Assembly (NCBI GenBank): GCA_903881585.1
Contig: CAIRTW010000062.1
Location: 1-42,380, forward strand
Direction: 5' to 3'
Length of the DNA stretch: 42,380 nucleotides
DNA from: an uncultured Bacteroidota bacterium
GTDB taxonomy: Bacteria > Bacteroidota > Bacteroidia > Chitinophagales > Chitinophagaceae
The position numbers and the translations under genes were made by a program. Each line of letters begins with the position of its first letter. Within the stretch, counting starts at the first letter, position 1. Under the pieces are notes generated by a model. It made no database searches. It was not told the DNA's origin and saw only the letters and a program-made list of their open reading frames with translations. This document shows positions 22,980 through 28,938 of this stretch, piece by piece.

Positions 22980-24494
22980 TTAATGCTTAAAGTGCCGTAA
23001 CCCCGTTATCACCATTGCCATATCATGCTCCTTGCAAAACTGTATGCTGTCGTTGTCCCGTACAGATCCGCCGGGTTGTATTACCGCGGTAATACCCGCC
23101 TCGTGAGCAACTGTGACACAGTCATTGAACGGGAAAAACGCATCGGAGGCCATTACCGCACCCTTAATGATAAAACCAAATTGCTTCGACTTGTCCAGGG
23201 CGTGGCGAAGAGCATCTATACGGCTGGTTTGGCCACAGCCCTTGCCTATGAGCTGCTTGTTTTTTACAATAGCTATCGCGTTCGATTTAAGGTGCTTGCA
23301 CACAATGTTGGCAAATAGCAGGTCTTCTTTCTCTGCCTCGCTGCTGTTTCTTGCGCCGGCTTCCTTCCATTCGGCAAAGTTCTGAGTGTCCGCGTCCTGC
23401 ACCAGTATGCCGTTGAGGATGCGCTTGTATTCTTTGGTAGGATAGAATGATTTTTTCTGGAGCAGCAGGTTGCGGTTCTTCTTGCTTTTCAATAATGCCA
23501 GTGCATCTTCGTCAAATGACGGCGCAAGAAGTATTTCAAAAAAGAGTTCGTTTATTTTCTGGGCTGCATCAATATCTATTGTTTGATTAGTGATGAGCAC
23601 ACCGCCAAAGGCGCTTTCAGGATCGCATGCAAGTGCGGCCTCCCAGGCGTGGGTTAGGTTGTCGCGCTCGGCAATGCCGCAAACATTAGTATGCTTGATG
23701 ATAGCGAATGCGGGTTTGGAAAACTCGGAGATGATCTGGCAGGCAGCATCTATATCCACGAGGTTGTTGTAGGACAATTCCTTGCCGTTTAGCTTCTCGA
23801 ACATTGCATCAAGGTCACCATAGAAGGCAGCAGACTGATGGGGGTTTTCTCCATAGCGAAGCGACTTTTCATTACTGAATGAAAGCTGGAAATGCCCGGT
23901 ACCAGATATTTGAGAGAAATAGCTGGCTATAGCCACATCATAATGCGCGCACTCTGCAAAAGCTAGTGCCGCAAAATGTTTCCGGTCGTGCAGCGATGTC
24001 ACACCATTTTGGGTTTCCAGCAATTGCAACAGTTCGCCATACTGATTTCTCGAGGCTACAATACATACGTCATTAAAATTCTTACCGGCAGCGCGTATCA
24101 GCGAAACGCCGCCGATGTCTATTTTTTCAATTATAGTTTTTTCGTCTGTGGTCTGCTTTACTGTCTCCTCAAACGGATAAAGATCAACGATCACCAGGTC
24201 GAGCAGCGGAATTTCGTATTCTTTTATATGCTGCTGATCCTGCTCAAGTGCGCGGCGGGCCAATATGCCGCCAAATACTTTGGGATGCAAGGTTTTCACC
24301 CGGCCGCCAAGAATGGAAGGGTAGCCCGTTACGCTTTCCACCGATGTGCAGGGAATGCCCAGCTGCTCAATGAATGTTTGGGTGCCGCCGGTAGAGTATA
24401 ATGCTGCGCCCAGGCTATGCAGTTTACGAACGACAGGCTCCAGACCGTCTTTATAGAAGACAGAGATCAGCGCTGATTTTATGGTACAGTTCAT
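22980..24494 (-). CDS. purH: bifunctional AICAR transformylase/IMP cyclohydrolase PurH
   Basis: Starting at MNCTIKSALISVFYKDGLEPV the protein has 504 residues, the normal PurH length. The N-terminal IMP cyclohydrolase (MGS-like) domain shows STGGT, GGRVKTLHPKVFGGIL and DLVIVDLYPFEETV. The C-terminal AICAR formyltransferase domain has the catalytic Lys-His in IIKHTNVCGIAE, the segment KSNAIAIVKNKQLIGKGCGQTSR, and the end VITGLRHFKH. It performs the last two steps of IMP synthesis. The frame extends to 24542, but the conserved domain begins at the chosen Met. A 7-bp stem (24520-24542) lies in the upstream leader. It is monocistronic, with no other pur gene beside it. Confidence 0.97.
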   Translation of the reverse strand: MNCTIKSALISVFYKDGLEPVVRKLHSLGAALYSTGGTQTFIEQLGIPCTSVESVTGYPSILGGRVKTLHPKVFGGILARRALEQDQQHIKEYEIPLLDLVIVDLYPFEETVKQTTDEKTIIEKIDIGGVSLIRAAGKNFNDVCIVASRNQYGELLQLLETQNGVTSLHDRKHFAALAFAECAHYDVAIASYFSQISGTGHFQLSFSNEKSLRYGENPHQSAAFYGDLDAMFEKLNGKELSYNNLVDIDAACQIISEFSKPAFAIIKHTNVCGIAERDNLTHAWEAALACDPESAFGGVLITNQTIDIDAAQKINELFFEILLAPSFDEDALALLKSKKNRNLLLQKKSFYPTKEYKRILNGILVQDADTQNFAEWKEAGARNSSEAEKEDLLFANIVCKHLKSNAIAIVKNKQLIGKGCGQTSRIDALRHALDKSKQFGFIIKGAVMASDAFFPFNDCVTVAHEAGITAVIQPGGSVRDNDSIQFCKEHDMAMVITGLRHFKH

Positions 24495-24542: not shown

Positions 24543-24576
24543 GAAAAATATATGGGGCTAATAGCGCAGCCAGGAA

Positions 24577-24714
24577 TTACCACCAGCGGTCCCCCGCATG
24601 ATAAGCGCCATGCCGTGGAACCCGCCTGTTGGTGCGTACACGTTGCGTGACACAACTGCTTAATTGAGCAAGGAGGAGCAGGACGGCGATTATTTTTATT
24701 AGTCTGTATTTCAT
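24577..24714 (-). CDS. tiny lipoprotein 1 of 4
   Basis: A 45-codon gene beginning MKYRLIKIIAVLLLLAQ with the lipobox LSSC (Cys21). The mature peptide is only 25 residues and very basic and aromatic at its end (RVRTNRRVPRHGAYHAGDRWW). It is the last and most divergent of four similar short genes on this strand. The n-region, hydrophobic core and lipobox are all textbook, which makes chance unlikely despite the length. The predicted product is a lipid-anchored peptide in the inner or outer membrane. Function unknown; in size and build it recalls entericidins and bacteriocin-release peptides, but no homology is claimed. Confidence 0.6.
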   Translation of the reverse strand: MKYRLIKIIAVLLLLAQLSSCVTQRVRTNRRVPRHGAYHAGDRWW

Positions 24715-24929
24715 TTGAAATTTTTTATTGTTGGCTGCGCAAAAAAGAGAGAACTCAATTATATCTCATTCCTAAAGCCATTTTGGCTTTACTTTGAAAT
24801 GGCAGTTTCATAAAACCATTTAACAGGTTTAAAAGTAATAAAATCTTCTGTTTTACGAATAGAATTTTTCAAAAGGCAATAAGTAAGCACACCGCTATGC
24901 GGGCAGCGTCTGTTGCAACGCAAGCCGTT

Positions 24930-25061
24930 TTAATAGTTTCTTTGGCGCGGCTGAGGGCGTACGGTCTTGTGCGGTTCTACCGTTTTTTTGCAGGTTGCAC
25001 AGCCTGTGATGTTAAGAGACACAATTAAAAGCAGCACTAACCTGAGCAGATCTCGTTTCAT
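24930..25061 (-). CDS. tiny lipoprotein 2 of 4
   Basis: A 43-residue protein from ATG 25061 (MKRDLLRLVLLLIVSLN) with lipobox ITGC, then ATCKKTVEPH and the tail KTVRPQPRQRNY. The frame is open for 20 more codons upstream, but the inner Met gives a normal signal peptide and aligns with the neighbouring copies (each begins ATGAAA). The 12-residue tail is identical to that of the gene at 25164. Nine of the twelve codons differ synonymously, which points to selection on the peptide. A TACTTTTA box lies at 25081-25088. Confidence 0.72.
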   Translation of the reverse strand: MKRDLLRLVLLLIVSLNITGCATCKKTVEPHKTVRPQPRQRNY

Positions 25062-25080
25062 TTTGGGAAGAGTATATAAG

Positions 25081-25088
25081 TAAAAGTA
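25081..25088 (-). promoter_or_regulatory. -7-like box TACTTTTA before tiny lipoprotein 2
   Basis: Matches TAnnTTTA on the minus strand, 19 bases before the ATG at 25061, a spacing close to those of the next two copies. Confidence 0.4.
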
Positions 25089-25163
25089 CATTTTCCAAAT
25101 AAGAAATAGGGCAATAGCCATCCTGTCTGCACGGGCAGAAGAATAAAAACACTGGAAATCAAA

Positions 25164-25295
25164 TTAGTAATTCCGCTGGCGTGGCTGGGGGCGCACCGTT
25201 TTTTGGGGTTCCACCACCTTCTTGTGTGTATGACAGCTTGCTATGCTAAATGCCACTACCGCCAGCAGCATTATCCTGAGTATATTATGTTTCAT
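25164..25295 (-). CDS. tiny lipoprotein 3 of 4
   Basis: A 43-residue protein from ATG 25295 (MKHNILRIMLLAVVAF) with lipobox SIASC, then HTHKKVVEPQ and the tail KTVRPQPRQRNY. It is the close paralogue of the gene at 24930: after the Cys both run [K]K-x-VEPxKTVRPQPRQRNY. The mature peptide has a net positive charge and two Pro residues, so it may be extended. It has its own -7 box at 25315-25322. The predicted location is a membrane face, lipid-anchored. Role unknown. Confidence 0.72.
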   Translation of the reverse strand: MKHNILRIMLLAVVAFSIASCHTHKKVVEPQKTVRPQPRQRNY

Positions 25296-25314
25296 CTGGG
25301 AGAAAATGTACGAC

Positions 25315-25322
25315 TAAAGATA
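25315..25322 (-). promoter_or_regulatory. -7 box TATCTTTA before tiny lipoprotein 3
   Basis: A TAnnTTTA box on the minus strand, 19 bases before the ATG at 25295. A TTTTGG sequence about 17 bases further upstream could be the -33 element. Confidence 0.5.
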
Positions 25323-25402
25323 ATCAATTTTGCGAATCCCAAAAGAAGCGGCAATAAAATATTGCTCCGCGTGTGCAGACCAGTAAAAGAACGAAGCGGC
25401 CA

Positions 25403-25525
25403 CTAATCGTTTATATGCCGTGCATGAGGACGAAGCACGGTGTATTGTGGTTGCTTCTTTTGTGTTTTGCAGCTGGCTATCAAAGCCACTGCCAGGAGGA
25501 CGAGAATGTATGTAGTGCGTTTCAT
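25403..25525 (-). CDS. tiny lipoprotein 4 of 4
   Basis: A 40-residue protein from ATG 25525 (MKRTTYILVLLAVALIASC). The lipobox is LIASC, followed by KTQKKQPQYTVLRPHARHIND. It keeps the Cys, the Lys-rich linker and a TVxRPxxR-like tail of the family, with the order slightly changed (TVLRPHAR). It is first in the cluster by direction of transcription and has its own TATCTTTA box at 25547-25554. The gene lies in what would otherwise look like a 1.1-kb empty region between purH and the membrane protein gene. Confidence 0.68.
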   Translation of the reverse strand: MKRTTYILVLLAVALIASCKTQKKQPQYTVLRPHARHIND

Positions 25526-25546
25526 TGGGGGGATAAATTTATAAAC

Positions 25547-25554
25547 TAAAGATA
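25547..25554 (-). promoter_or_regulatory. -7 box TATCTTTA before tiny lipoprotein 4
   Basis: Same eight bases as at 25315, again about 21 bases before the ATG; the following AGT is also shared. Confidence 0.5.
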
Positions 25555-25647: not shown

Positions 25648-27123
25648 TTAGTTTACTCTGCAAACTGTAAAACTATATCCCTGTGGTGTATTGGTGAGCG
25701 GGATGCCGAGGAATTTTCTCTTTTCAGCAGTACGCCAGTCGTAGATAATCGTGCATTTGCTTAGGAATTCGTTAGCAAAGGGCAAATACATTTGCTGGAT
25801 AATAAGGGTATCACCGCTCTTAAAGTGAATGCTGTCGAAAAATTTCACATCATCCACGTCATCAACCAGTGGCCAAAGGTTTACGGTGATATACACGTTC
25901 TTGCCATTGTGCACAAAACCATTAATAAGGGGCCTCGCTGCGGCAAAGTCTTTCCGGTCGTTCTTGTAATCTATAAAAAGGATGAATACCCGTAGAAATA
26001 CTATAGTCCCTGCTACATAAGTAGCAATGGTCAATGTATTAACTGTTGTTTTCAAAAACCCTTTTGGCAGCGATAAAATGCTCAGGAACAAATAAACGGA
26101 CAACGGCAAAATGAACTGCGTAGCATTATAAACCGTTGGCGACGCATACAGGATGAACCGGGCAATACCATACAATATCATCAGCTGTAGCGCGGATACA
26201 AGAATTATAGTAATGACACTATTGCGTTTAAAATGCGCGAAAAGCGATCTTAAATAAAAGAAGGTACACAACAGGAACAATATCAGGAAGCCAAAATTGA
26301 GCGGTGCTAAAAGCCAGTAGTGTATAAAGAGTTTTGCACTGCGGTCGATGCGCGTCATGGCAGATGCGGCATGGAGGCGAATGGTGTTTATAGTGTCTGC
26401 AAACCCATGTGGAGATGCCGATAAGATGCCATAGAAAACCAAAGCAATAACAGCAAAACGCGCGGCATTCACCCAAATACATCTAAAAACGTCGCTGGTA
26501 TTTAATAGTTCAAATGTCACAAAGAACAGGAAGCAGAAATAAAAACAGATGAGCTGCGTTGCGAACATTACAGAGAAAATGACGCAGATAAGCAGGTTAT
26601 ACAGCATTGCGTTCATGCCTGCCCGCTTGTTGTAAAGCAGAAATATCATAAACACCAAGAGCACAGTAATGGTCTCCGGGCGGCCAACAGTAGGAATGAG
26701 ATAGGTAGATACATAAACGACTGAGAACAGTACCATCATTTTCAATGCTGTACCGATCCGTTCGGGTAACACCGAGATCATAGTGCGGCAGTATAAAAAC
26801 AGGCTGGCAATGCTGAAGAGCGAGCAAATGAAAAAAATTGTTTTTATACCGGGATGCACCCTGCTCAATGAACCCAGCAGCATAGGAAAAAAAGGAACGT
26901 AGTAATTGAATTTTATAGCATTGTGAATATCCGTAGCCACTCCTACCACAGAGACATCATAAAGCGGGTTAATGAGCCCTAACCCATGTGAATATAGCAA
27001 CGCGGTAGGAATAAATACCCTGGAATCAGTACCGGGCGTGGGATATACATTGAGCCCATACAGAATAAGGATAACACACACAACGGCAGTTAAGGAATAA
27101 AGCAAAACCTTAAATCTATTCAT
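25648..27123 (-). CDS. GT-C-like polytopic membrane protein (PMT/ArnT-type topology)
   Basis: A 491-residue protein with about ten transmembrane helices. The first helix is followed by YPTPGTDSRVFIPTALLYSHGLG. An Asp in the first periplasmic loop next to Arg (TDSR) is the layout of GT-C enzymes such as GT39/GT83, where it acts in catalysis with a polyprenyl-phosphate sugar. The C-terminal about 110 residues are soluble, with DWRTAEKRKFLGIPL. The family call rests on topology and this motif only. It is close to the Wzi-like barrel gene (45 bp) on the same strand, so a role in surface glycans is plausible. Confidence 0.72.
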   Translation of the reverse strand: MNRFKVLLYSLTAVVCVILILYGLNVYPTPGTDSRVFIPTALLYSHGLGLINPLYDVSVVGVATDIHNAIKFNYYVPFFPMLLGSLSRVHPGIKTIFFICSLFSIASLFLYCRTMISVLPERIGTALKMMVLFSVVYVSTYLIPTVGRPETITVLLVFMIFLLYNKRAGMNAMLYNLLICVIFSVMFATQLICFYFCFLFFVTFELLNTSDVFRCIWVNAARFAVIALVFYGILSASPHGFADTINTIRLHAASAMTRIDRSAKLFIHYWLLAPLNFGFLILFLLCTFFYLRSLFAHFKRNSVITIILVSALQLMILYGIARFILYASPTVYNATQFILPLSVYLFLSILSLPKGFLKTTVNTLTIATYVAGTIVFLRVFILFIDYKNDRKDFAAARPLINGFVHNGKNVYITVNLWPLVDDVDDVKFFDSIHFKSGDTLIIQQMYLPFANEFLSKCTIIYDWRTAEKRKFLGIPLTNTPQGYSFTVCRVN

Positions 27124-27168: not shown

Positions 27169-28938
27169 TTAGAAGAAATCATAATCGCGCCTCGATGCAT
27201 TAAGCCGAATGCCCACATAGAAATAATTAGTGGTAAGCGGGCCATACACGGGGCCGGTGGTAGAATAGTCGTTCTTATAAATACCGTCATTGTTGGCATA
27301 TTTCCGGTAGGTATCGCCGATATCAATAAACATATTTCTGCGCACCTGGTAAGAGATATTTAGGTTCATCATCTCGCAGTGCGCCCTGGGCCCATTGATC
27401 ATACTTACTCCATACTGGCTGGGCGCGGAAACATAGGGGTCAAAGATGTTGTTGCCCAGGTTTGCGCCGCCTGTATCCACGCCTTGTATATAGTAAGTGC
27501 CTTTAAGGGTGAGGTAAAGATTCTTTGCCGGCTGATACTTTGCTACACCCACAACGCGTATAAAGCCGGAGCCGAGCGGATCTGCCAGCGGCTGATTGTA
27601 ATTGGTATAGTTGGCAAGGGTATCTTTTGCAGCATAGGTATAGGGGCGCACGGCGTCTATCTCTCCCTGTAGGTCCAGGTTCTTTATGGTGAAGGCATCG
27701 AAGTATTTTCCACCAGCCTGTATGCCCCATTTGTTGCCATACCATCCCTTACTGCTGATAAGCTCTTTAGCCCTGAACTCATTGAACATGAGCTGGCCAT
27801 AAAACTGCAGGTGTTTCGCCACTATGGCTTTTGCACTCATACCAAGTATGGACTTATCACCTTCACCGTTAAAACGGTTTATAGCCGTAGAGAAAATGAT
27901 CGGGTTGAGATAAGACAGCTCGTAAGTATTGGGCCGGTCAAACACCTCGGCTTCAAAAAAGCCAAGATTCAGCCATTTGGTTGTGTTCCAGGTGAGGTAG
28001 TGAATAGTAGAGTATTTATGCGCAATAAGGCCGTCGCCCTGGTTCTTATCATATTGAGGCGTCAGCTCCAGGTACAGGCATTCATAGTTGATATGCCATA
28101 TGCGTGTCTGCAATTGCAGGAACGGCATATTGGATGAATAGTCGGTAAGAAAAAGGCTGCTGATACCATCGCCCAGGAAATGTTTGCCGGAGCCGAACGA
28201 AACATTCACATGGTTTTTAATCGCATCGAAATTAACATAACCGCTGGCTTGCAGATAATCATAACGCCCGGTGGCGCCAGTGGCGATACCGGGAGGTAAA
28301 AAGTAATCAGCTCCCGGCACATTCTGGTGCCTGGGGTCTGTGACAGAATTATAAACAAAATAAGGGTATTGCTCCTGGTTATCAACTACAGATGTATAGA
28401 AACCGATCTTTTTGGCTATCCAGCCGCGCAGCTCTGCGCCCTGGCTGTTGGTAATGACCTTGTGCGATATGCCCTCTGGCGCAGGGGTATTTTGCTGGTA
28501 CAGAGCTATTCCACTAAGCACGGGATTTACCACCACAAAAAAGTCCTTAGTTTTCACATAAGCCAGGTCATATTGCTTCGTATAAAAAGTATGGAACCAT
28601 GAAAGCTTTGAGTTTAAGGCACCATTTTCATTGCGTGCCCACTCACCGCTCTCAGATACCATTTGCTCTATATTGTACCAATCTATCTGTGAAATACTCT
28701 TTTTAGTCGGTGTGTCACTGCCCACAGGTGGTACCAGCGATTCAAGAAAATATATTGCGTTTCTGCGCGACTCCGGCTTATCTCCGGTGCAAAGCGTATC
28801 AGAAAGCCTGCCGGAGCGCGTCTCCAGCCGGTCCAGCACATGATTATCTTCTGAGCCTATCTGCAAAAAAGTGGTTTGAGCCTGTGAAAGAACAGCAGTA
28901 GATAACAGCGCAGCAAGCAGGCAGGCTTTTTTAAGCAT
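27169..28938 (-). CDS. outer-membrane β-barrel, Wzi/RemB-like capsule assembly family
   Basis: A 589-residue protein with a signal peptide (cut near LSQAQ). The rest has regular amphipathic β strands and a C-terminal aromatic residue (RRDYDFF), as in outer-membrane barrels. Segments such as FGSGKHFLGDGISSLFLTDYSSNMPFLQLQT and NLGFFEAEVF, LNPIIFS are typical of the Wzi capsule-assembly family. In Flavobacterium a member of this group is the gliding protein RemB. The likely role is binding or export of surface polysaccharide at the outer membrane. It is upstream of the GT-C-like gene on the same strand and divergent from pyrC (79 bp gap). Confidence 0.83.
   Translation of the reverse strand: MLKKACLLAALLSTAVLSQAQTTFLQIGSEDNHVLDRLETRSGRLSDTLCTGDKPESRRNAIYFLESLVPPVGSDTPTKKSISQIDWYNIEQMVSESGEWARNENGALNSKLSWFHTFYTKQYDLAYVKTKDFFVVVNPVLSGIALYQQNTPAPEGISHKVITNSQGAELRGWIAKKIGFYTSVVDNQEQYPYFVYNSVTDPRHQNVPGADYFLPPGIATGATGRYDYLQASGYVNFDAIKNHVNVSFGSGKHFLGDGISSLFLTDYSSNMPFLQLQTRIWHINYECLYLELTPQYDKNQGDGLIAHKYSTIHYLTWNTTKWLNLGFFEAEVFDRPNTYELSYLNPIIFSTAINRFNGEGDKSILGMSAKAIVAKHLQFYGQLMFNEFRAKELISSKGWYGNKWGIQAGGKYFDAFTIKNLDLQGEIDAVRPYTYAAKDTLANYTNYNQPLADPLGSGFIRVVGVAKYQPAKNLYLTLKGTYYIQGVDTGGANLGNNIFDPYVSAPSQYGVSMINGPRAHCEMMNLNISYQVRRNMFIDIGDTYRKYANNDGIYKNDYSTTGPVYGPLTTNYFYVGIRLNASRRDYDFF

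What the first reader, a model, noticed from the sequence alone, without database searches (positions are those of the whole stretch)
24577..25525. Cluster of four tiny lipoprotein genes hidden in an apparent gap
Seen: four minus-strand genes of 40-45 codons, each with a basic n-region, hydrophobic core, a lipobox (LSSC, ITGC, SIASC, LIASC) and a basic, Pro/Arg-rich mature peptide of about 20-25 residues. Three share the start context C-C-C-n(2-4)-ATGAAA. Together they fill most of the 1.1 kb between purH and the next membrane gene. Known: entericidins and bacteriocin-release peptides have similar size and build. Inference: a small paralogous family of lipid-anchored cationic peptides, perhaps an envelope-stress, toxin/antidote or signalling set.
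Basis: partly seen in the sequence, partly recalled or inferred. Interest (0 to 1): 0.7.

Follow-up and report, generated by a model that had tools for sequence, protein, structure and literature searches.

The report
Genus-conserved tiny cationic lipoprotein genes
Four very short genes beside purH encode tiny, positively charged peptides that look lipid-anchored and that selection has preserved in related bacteria, so they are real genes of a still uncharacterised kind whose job is probably in the cell envelope.

Summary
Four minus-strand ORFs of 45, 43, 43 and 40 codons (A, B, C, D) each have a lipoprotein-type signal peptide and a short basic tail. By one set of criteria, set afterwards, they are the only four in the 42 kb window; shuffles of the gap give 0.0015 on average. 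They fill about 46% of the gap, not most.

They are real genes. A is found in 33 of 35 genomes of the genus; the two without it are 57% and 65% complete. In the 34 A loci read without a tail filter the last residue is W in 34, and Y and R hold fixed places in 33 and 32. B, C and D form a second family, 12 genes at this locus in 7 of 35 genomes. B and C share 11 tail residues though 8 of 11 codons differ. pN is below pS in every pair tested.

No family library gives a match above threshold. Nothing found supports a toxin/antidote or bacteriocin-release role. Best reading: envelope lipopeptides whose conserved tail docks on a periplasmic partner; lipidation, location and partner are inferred. 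A new family of a known kind.

The parts
24577..24714 (-). Gene A: 45-aa predicted lipoprotein (lipobox LSSC), tail ...RTNRRVPRHGAYHAGDRWW
   Evidence: match in 33 of 35 genomes of the genus; last residue W 34/34 loci, Y 33/34, R 32/34; pN<pS in 153 of 153 pairs of 18 sequences
24930..25061 (-). Gene B: 43-aa predicted lipoprotein (lipobox ITGC), tail ...KTVRPQPRQRNY; paralogue of C
25164..25295 (-). Gene C: 43-aa predicted lipoprotein (lipobox IASC), tail ...KTVRPQPRQRNY
25403..25525 (-). Gene D: 40-aa predicted lipoprotein (lipobox IASC), tail ...VLRPHARHIND
24829..24844 (-). AT-rich element ATTTTATTACTTTTAA upstream of A, likely its promoter (a -7-like TAHHTTTA lies inside it)
   Evidence: 26 of 32 distinct A genes carry it, 0.07 expected; motif set afterwards; one other exact match in this genome
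25062..25088 (-). Leader of B with -7-like box TACTTTTA (25081-25088) and CCC before ATG
   Evidence: (12 of 12 B/C/D-type genes have such a box, 1.9 expected; motif set afterwards)
25296..25322 (-). Leader of C with -7-like box TATCTTTA (25315-25322) and CCC before ATG
25526..25554 (-). Leader of D with -7-like box TATCTTTA (25547-25554) and CCC before ATG
24556..24571 (-). Weak terminator-like hairpin between A and purH
   Evidence: 4 sites in the region, 1.8 +/- 1.4 expected; weak
24889..24909 (-). Terminator-like hairpin after B
   Evidence: same weak statistics
22980..24494 (-). purH (AICARFT/IMPCHase; ATG at 24494 assumed), downstream neighbour of A; context, not part of the finding
   Evidence: Pfam PF01808 E 1e-103; for the ATG
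25648..27123 (-). Membrane protein of 491 aa (glycosyltransferase-like by eye only), upstream neighbour; context
   Evidence: no Pfam or NCBIfam match

Best explanation
These are genes for tiny lipoproteins. After signal-peptide cleavage at the lipobox Cys, a peptide of about 20-25 residues is left, tethered by its lipid to a membrane, most likely the inner leaflet of the outer membrane. The tether leaves a flexible, strongly basic tail in the periplasm. The residues under strongest constraint lie at fixed distances from the C terminus (Y-x-x-[AG]-[GD]-R-x-W in A; RPx[PA]R in B/C/D). So the tail most likely works as a short docking motif on a fixed envelope partner, such as an outer-membrane barrel or an assembly or tethering factor, much as LptM docks on LptDE. 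A is the genus-wide copy with its own promoter-like element; B, C and D are an array expanded at the same locus in some relatives. Shown here: codon-level selection on the protein, conserved tails, distribution. Inferred: translation, lipidation, outer-membrane location, periplasmic orientation, docking, partner.
For: Only four such ORFs in 42 kb, 0.0015 expected in the gap. A in 33 of 35 genomes of the genus. pN<pS in 153/153 pairs (A, 18 sequences), 15/15 (C set of 6, which includes B), 6/6 (D, 4); median dN/dS among pairs with pS below 0.6: 0.19 for A (13 pairs), 0.29 for the C set (3) and 0.085 for D (1) (about half of the A genes and the G012 and G033 array genes were not in these sets). 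B and C tails: 11 identical residues, 8 codons changed. Tails read at the profile-hit coordinates without any tail filter: last residue W in 34 of 34 loci, Y 33, R 32; net charge (R+K-D-E) +3 to +7. In A the tail's third codon positions vary more than first and second (1.61, 1.01, 0.95 bits). AlphaFold gives one helix over residues 2-24, confident over about the first 20, and a low-confidence tail (pLDDT about 57) with only a short helical stretch at 40-43, compatible with a linear motif. Acidic residues just after Cys, which in Bacteroidetes form the surface-export signal (PMC5080379, passages), are absent within five residues in the window peptides and in 33 of 34 A loci.
Against: No partner was identified and no experiment or SignalP run was available. 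The tail is also simply basic and aromatic, so charge could explain part of the constraint. A sits in two different gene neighbourhoods, so gene order does not point to one partner. Beyond the genus no full-length A was recognised in 396 genomes of the order, odd for a factor serving conserved machinery, although that search scored at most 18 candidates per genome. Low model confidence for a 45-aa peptide is also what a poor prediction looks like.
Confidence: 0.45

Rival explanations
1. Electrostatic envelope glue: the basic tails bind anionic polymers (inner-core lipopolysaccharide phosphates or peptidoglycan carboxylates) without a specific protein partner and help hold the outer membrane to the wall.
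For: A tails have net charge +3 to +7. A dispersed third set of about 52-aa lipoproteins in the genus (family E) has the same basic, aromatic build with a different sequence.
Against: Positions at the very C terminus of A are fixed as residues, not only as charge (W 34/34, Y 33/34). B and C tails are identical in 11 residues.
Confidence: 0.25
2. Entericidin-like, bacteriocin-release-like or spanin-like lipopeptides: membrane-active toxin and antidote, or lysis aids.
For: Similar size and signal peptide; weak entericidin A matches to D and B; weak matches to Rz-like spanin families, best E 0.006 for A.
Against: All these matches lie below cutoff or above E 0.001. Two viral-contig scans, limited to one short peptide pattern each, confirmed no relatives. 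A is near-universal in the genus, with one strong match per genome in 32 of 33.
Confidence: 0.08
3. Peptide signals or antimicrobial peptides: the Pro/Arg tail of B/C/D (RPQPRQRNY) recalls proline-rich antimicrobial peptides (a recalled resemblance) and may act on other cells through vesicles.
For: The array occurs in 7 of 35 genomes, as two or three copies in four of them (the window, G004, G015, G020), a patchy, expanding pattern.
Against: A lipid anchor would retain the peptide; tails are under purifying, not diversifying, selection. Export or immunity genes were not searched for.
Confidence: 0.07
4. A is a leader peptide or regulatory uORF of purH.
For: A lies upstream of purH on the same strand in 22 of 33 genomes, 72-278 nt away in 20 of these 22.
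Against: In the other 11 genomes the fetched stretch around A holds no purH (some stretches are short), yet the tail is conserved in all. In one of them, G017, purH was seen on another contig.
Confidence: 0.03
5. The frames are by-products of conserved DNA or RNA and are not translated.
For: Upstream elements are conserved too.
Against: Non-synonymous change is below synonymous change in every pair; no Rfam match in the window.
Confidence: 0.03

Closest known systems
LptM (YifL) of Enterobacteriaceae
   Same: Lipoprotein of about 6 kDa whose short mature part docks on an outer-membrane machine (PMC10567701, abstract and passages)
   Different: LptM has PF13627 around the lipobox, and LptM-like genes are virtually absent outside Proteobacteria (same passages); here the C terminus is what is conserved, and PF13627 is not among the Pfam matches of the four
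Entericidin A/B and Atu8019
   Same: Signal peptide plus short mature lipopeptide; Atu8019 has 53 aa, mature 32 aa, and showed no lysis (PMC7296081, abstract and passages)
   Different: NCBIfam entericidin A reached only 14.7 and 13.1 bits against 86 for D and B and was not listed for A and C
Rz1-like o-spanins of phages
   Same: Tiny outer-membrane lipoproteins, often proline-rich (recalled)
   Different: PHROG matches do not reach E 0.001; the flanking genes are purH and a 491-aa protein; no relatives confirmed in two viral-contig scans
Lpp (Braun lipoprotein)
   Same: Small lipoprotein linking outer membrane and wall (recalled)
   Different: No C-terminal Lys in the sequences read and no folded domain in the model of A; criteria recalled
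Family H: order-wide tiny lipoproteins with tail KKDC[RK]GxTKHRLxNG[VI]W (found here)
   Same: 42-50 aa, lipobox, basic tail with W next to the end; K-[HY]-R and W fall at the same spacing as in A (column-permutation fraction 0.05)
   Different: Profile comparison with A aligns only the lipobox, so common descent is not shown
Genus-specific small-protein families of the global smORF catalogue
   Different: Membership of these peptides in that catalogue was not checked

Membership tests
Bacterial lipoproteins (type II signal peptide) | Basic n-region, hydrophobic core, lipobox | tested here: met
   Pattern check; no SignalP run available
Bacterial lipoproteins (type II signal peptide) | Diacylglycerol on the Cys | not testable with these tools
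   needs globomycin or palmitate-labelling test
Bacteroidetes surface-exposed lipoproteins | Acidic export signal directly after Cys, e.g. C-x-K-(D/E)2 | tested here: not met
   Window peptides read CVTQRV, CATCKK, CHTHKK, CKTQKK; 1 of 34 A loci has an acidic residue within five; rule from PMC5080379
Entericidin | NCBIfam entericidin A model above cutoff (86 bits) | tested here: not met
   14.7 and 13.1 bits
LptM | PF13627 lipobox motif | tested here: not met
   not among Pfam matches up to E 10 for the four (HMMER filters drop most weak matches)
Rz1 o-spanin | PHROG spanin family match at E 0.001 | tested here: not met
   best E 0.0059
Rz1 o-spanin | Paired i-spanin gene overlapping or adjacent | tested here: inconclusive
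   flanking genes are purH and a 491-aa protein without family match; no dedicated i-spanin search
B/C/D as one paralogous family | Significant similarity and shared tail RPx[PA]R | tested here: met
   D alone against C is weak (E 0.28)
A as a member of the B/C/D family | Similarity beyond the signal peptide | tested here: inconclusive
   C as query does not find A; shared layout only
A as a member of order-wide family H | Profile similarity beyond the lipobox | tested here: not met
   hhalign aligns nine columns at the lipobox; tail spacing similarity only suggestive

The most novel reading that the evidence does not exclude
A class of envelope docking lipopeptides in the order that family libraries miss: several families of about 40-55-aa lipoproteins whose C-terminal motif (AGRYW, RPQPRQRNY, HRNRDW, TKHRLxNGxW) is the working part. 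A, B/C/D and E each have their own upstream element, and A may be read from a leaderless or nearly leaderless mRNA in about a third of its genes. The tail recruits or regulates an outer-membrane machine that has no counterpart in Proteobacteria.
Probability: 0.25. Interest if true: 0.65.

Novelty: new member of a known kind. Interest (0 to 1): 0.42.

Why it matters
Tiny lipoproteins such as LptM have proved to be working parts of outer-membrane machines that were long uncharacterised. Here a genus keeps one such gene in practically every genome examined, with an invariant tail end, and some members amplify a second family beside it. That gives a short, testable motif and a set of natural variants for finding an envelope partner in Bacteroidota.

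Tried and rejected
Pfam, NCBIfam, PHROGs, PADLOC and Rfam gave nothing above threshold for the four peptides or the window stretch; a PDB search with the A profile gave one match at E 0.33 over the signal peptide (B, C, D not searched). Two viral-contig scans confirmed no relatives (18 and 261 pattern matches, none confirmed). A purH-leader role was rejected because A occurs without purH in the fetched stretch in 11 of 33 genomes. The A element was tested as a genome-wide promoter and is not above its control in this genome (12 sites against 17). The E motif gives 45 sites against 17 in the control, 44 of them with two mismatches; only one is known to lie before an E gene, so a wider use of it is not excluded. 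The 589-aa neighbour looked like a Wzi-type protein to me from memory; no Pfam, NCBIfam or PDB match supports it and its model is worthless (mean pLDDT 29.8), so I do not claim it. Literature searches for such lipoproteins (listings only, open-access library) showed none described. Descent of A from family H was tested and not shown.

Limits. All upstream motifs and the ORF criteria were defined after looking at the sequences, so expected counts are guides. The A sets were picked with patterns that demand a terminal W and at least six R/K/H, and the B/C/D and E sets with patterns that demand their tails, so the 33/33 W is by construction; one search repeats the count without that filter. In one search, 6 of 32 A genes lack the strict motif: two carry a near variant, four none seen. 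Large searches scored few candidates per genome (18, 36-37), so absence outside the genus is weak. One search matched 28 of 195 genomes with the B/C/D profile, the window's own included; of the other loci I looked at 7 and 9, saw no RPx[PA]R tail, and did not look at the rest.

Full report
What is there. On the minus strand between a 491-aa membrane protein (25648-27123) and purH lie four ORFs: D 25403-25525 (40 aa), C 25164-25295 (43 aa), B 24930-25061 (43 aa) and A 24577-24714 (45 aa). purH is confirmed by Pfam. Each ORF starts with a basic n-region and a hydrophobic core and has a lipobox (IASC, IASC, ITGC, LSSC), followed by a short basic tail. The tails end VLRPHARHIND (D), KTVRPQPRQRNY (C and B) and PRHGAYHAGDRWW (A). 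With explicit criteria written after seeing them, these are the only four such ORFs in the whole window; 2000 dinucleotide shuffles of the gap give 0.0015 on average and never four. They cover about 525 of some 1150 bp.

Are they genes? The window lies in a genome of 4.85 Mb in 376 contigs. Thirteen relatives found in named records are Chitinophagaceae or Bacteroidetes MAGs. A profile of A finds a full-length or nearly full-length match (E below 1e-8) in 33 of the 35 genomes of the genus; the other two, G025 and G014, are 57% and 65% complete. A profile of B/C/D finds 12 genes at this locus in 7 of 35 genomes: three in the window, two each in G004, G015 and G020, one each in G003, G012 and G033, plus one weak match elsewhere in G033. 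Non-synonymous change is below synonymous change in all pairs compared: A 153 of 153 (18 sequences), the C set with B 15 of 15 (6), D 6 of 6 (4). The pairs are not independent, many are saturated at silent sites, and not every gene was in the sets; the median dN/dS among the pairs with pS below 0.6 is 0.19 (A, 13 pairs), 0.29 (C set, 3 pairs) and 0.085 (D, 1 pair). B and C end in the same 11 residues while 8 of those 11 codons differ. Reading the A frame at the profile-hit coordinates with no filter on the tail, the last residue is W in 34 of 34 loci (33 genomes), the Y at the eighth place from the end is present in 33 and the R two before the W in 32. In a set of 33 A proteins picked by their tail, codon positions 1, 2 and 3 of the tail have 1.01, 0.95 and 1.61 bits of entropy. 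This is protein-level constraint aimed at the tail.

Are the four one family? B and C are clear paralogues (63% identical). D shares KK and RPxAR with them, and its orthologues match their profile (the profile was built with D-type rows), but C alone finds D only at E 0.28. A is not found by C and is best treated as a second family with the same layout. Further families of this layout exist: a dispersed family of about 52 aa ending in DW (E), one member of which lies in the window's own genome on another contig (L046), and a longer one beginning CRMR. Tails containing GKYW, GRYW or GQYW occur in a few other genera of the family (G146, G222, G103). Across 396 genomes drawn from the order I recognised no full-length A outside the window's own genome; most matches cover the signal peptide and little more, and at most 18 candidates per genome were scored. 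One of those matches led to family H: 42-50-aa lipoproteins with the tail KKDC[RK]GxTKHRLxNG[VI]W, found in 44 of 198 genomes drawn from the order but not in the window's genome, without Pfam match and with only sub-threshold NCBIfam matches for three members scanned. Its K-[HY]-R and W fall at the same spacing as in A, but a profile comparison aligns only the lipobox and a column-permutation test gives a fraction of 0.05, so common descent is not shown.

Gene order. In 34 loci from 33 genomes, purH lies downstream of A on the same strand in 22 (72-278 nt away in 20 of them, 561 and 1678 nt in the others); the remaining 12 loci, from 11 genomes, have no purH in the fetched stretch. Some of those stretches are short. 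B/C/D genes lie upstream of A at the purH site in all seven genomes. So A is not tied to purH as a leader peptide.

Transcription. Upstream of A, 26 of 32 distinct genes carry an AT-rich element (near RTTTTAYTAHTTTTAA) at 5 to 124 nt from the ATG, in both gene orders (0.07 expected by mononucleotide shuffling). In the window's genome it is matched exactly only here and at one other place, and the count with one mismatch is not above its control, so it is not a general promoter. It contains TAHHTTTA, close to the Bacteroidetes -7 box TAHHTTTG (PMC6847099, passages). In 10 of 32 it ends 5-7 nt before ATG, which would leave almost no leader; in Flavobacterium 87% of predicted leaders are longer than 10 nt (same passages). 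B/C/D genes have a TAnnTTTR-like box in 12 of 12 (1.9 expected), 8-32 nt before ATG. Weak terminator-like hairpins follow A, B and D, but the count is only slightly above shuffles (4 against 1.8 +/- 1.4). Separate small transcripts are therefore plausible, not shown.

What they do. No library gives a function: Pfam and NCBIfam, PHROGs and PADLOC, Rfam, PDB with the A profile. AlphaFold on 14 aligned A sequences gives one helix over the signal peptide and a tail of low confidence without a folded domain. In Bacteroidetes, acidic residues directly after the lipidated Cys send lipoproteins to the surface (PMC5080379, passages); the window peptides have none there, nor do 33 of 34 A loci, so a periplasm-facing tail is expected. 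My best explanation is a lipid-anchored docking motif on an envelope partner, the way LptM acts on LptDE (PMC10567701, passages). The main rival is non-specific binding of the basic tail to anionic envelope polymers. Toxin, bacteriocin-release and spanin readings rest on weak resemblance below threshold and found no support. Translation, lipidation, membrane, orientation and partner are all inferred.

Verdict. I found no description of them in print (searches, listings of an open-access library only), and they are a new family, or two, of a known kind of protein.

Noticed in passing
L230-L249 (match near 1501), first seen at L142 1486-1635: Family H: 42-50-aa lipoproteins with a strikingly conserved tail (KKDC[RK]GxTKHRLxNG[VI]W), in 44 of 198 genomes drawn from the order, no Pfam match and only sub-threshold NCBIfam matches for three members. 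Neighbours differ between families: a polyphosphate-kinase-like gene in 7 of 20 loci, a polyprenyl-synthase-like gene in 6 (names by eye).
   Followed up: partly
L019, L020, L021, L023, L026-L029, L046, L047, L048 (match near 1501): Dispersed family E of about 52 aa ending in DW, rich in His, Arg, Tyr and Trp; 10 of 10 distinct genes that a tail pattern recovered carry CGATATTAG or a close variant 34-60 nt before ATG. Also in the window's own genome, contig C83.
   Followed up: partly
L054, L059, L062, L066 (other genera of the family): Tiny lipoproteins with a KxGCP motif after the lipid Cys, adjacent to a small protein that looks like the bacilliredoxin YtxJ (name recalled, not searched).
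   Followed up: no
L185 6823-7059; L032 1387-1614: A further layout of 75-78 aa beginning CRMR and ending in an HRG-containing tail, found near purH in two genomes.
   Followed up: no
L153-L155, L160-L163, L168, L171, L172 (upstream of gene A): The A promoter-like element ends only 5-7 nt before ATG in these ten genomes, suggesting leaderless or nearly leaderless mRNA.
   Followed up: partly
window 27169-28938: A conserved 589-aa protein upstream of the cluster in many genomes of the genus, with no Pfam, NCBIfam or PDB match.
   Followed up: partly
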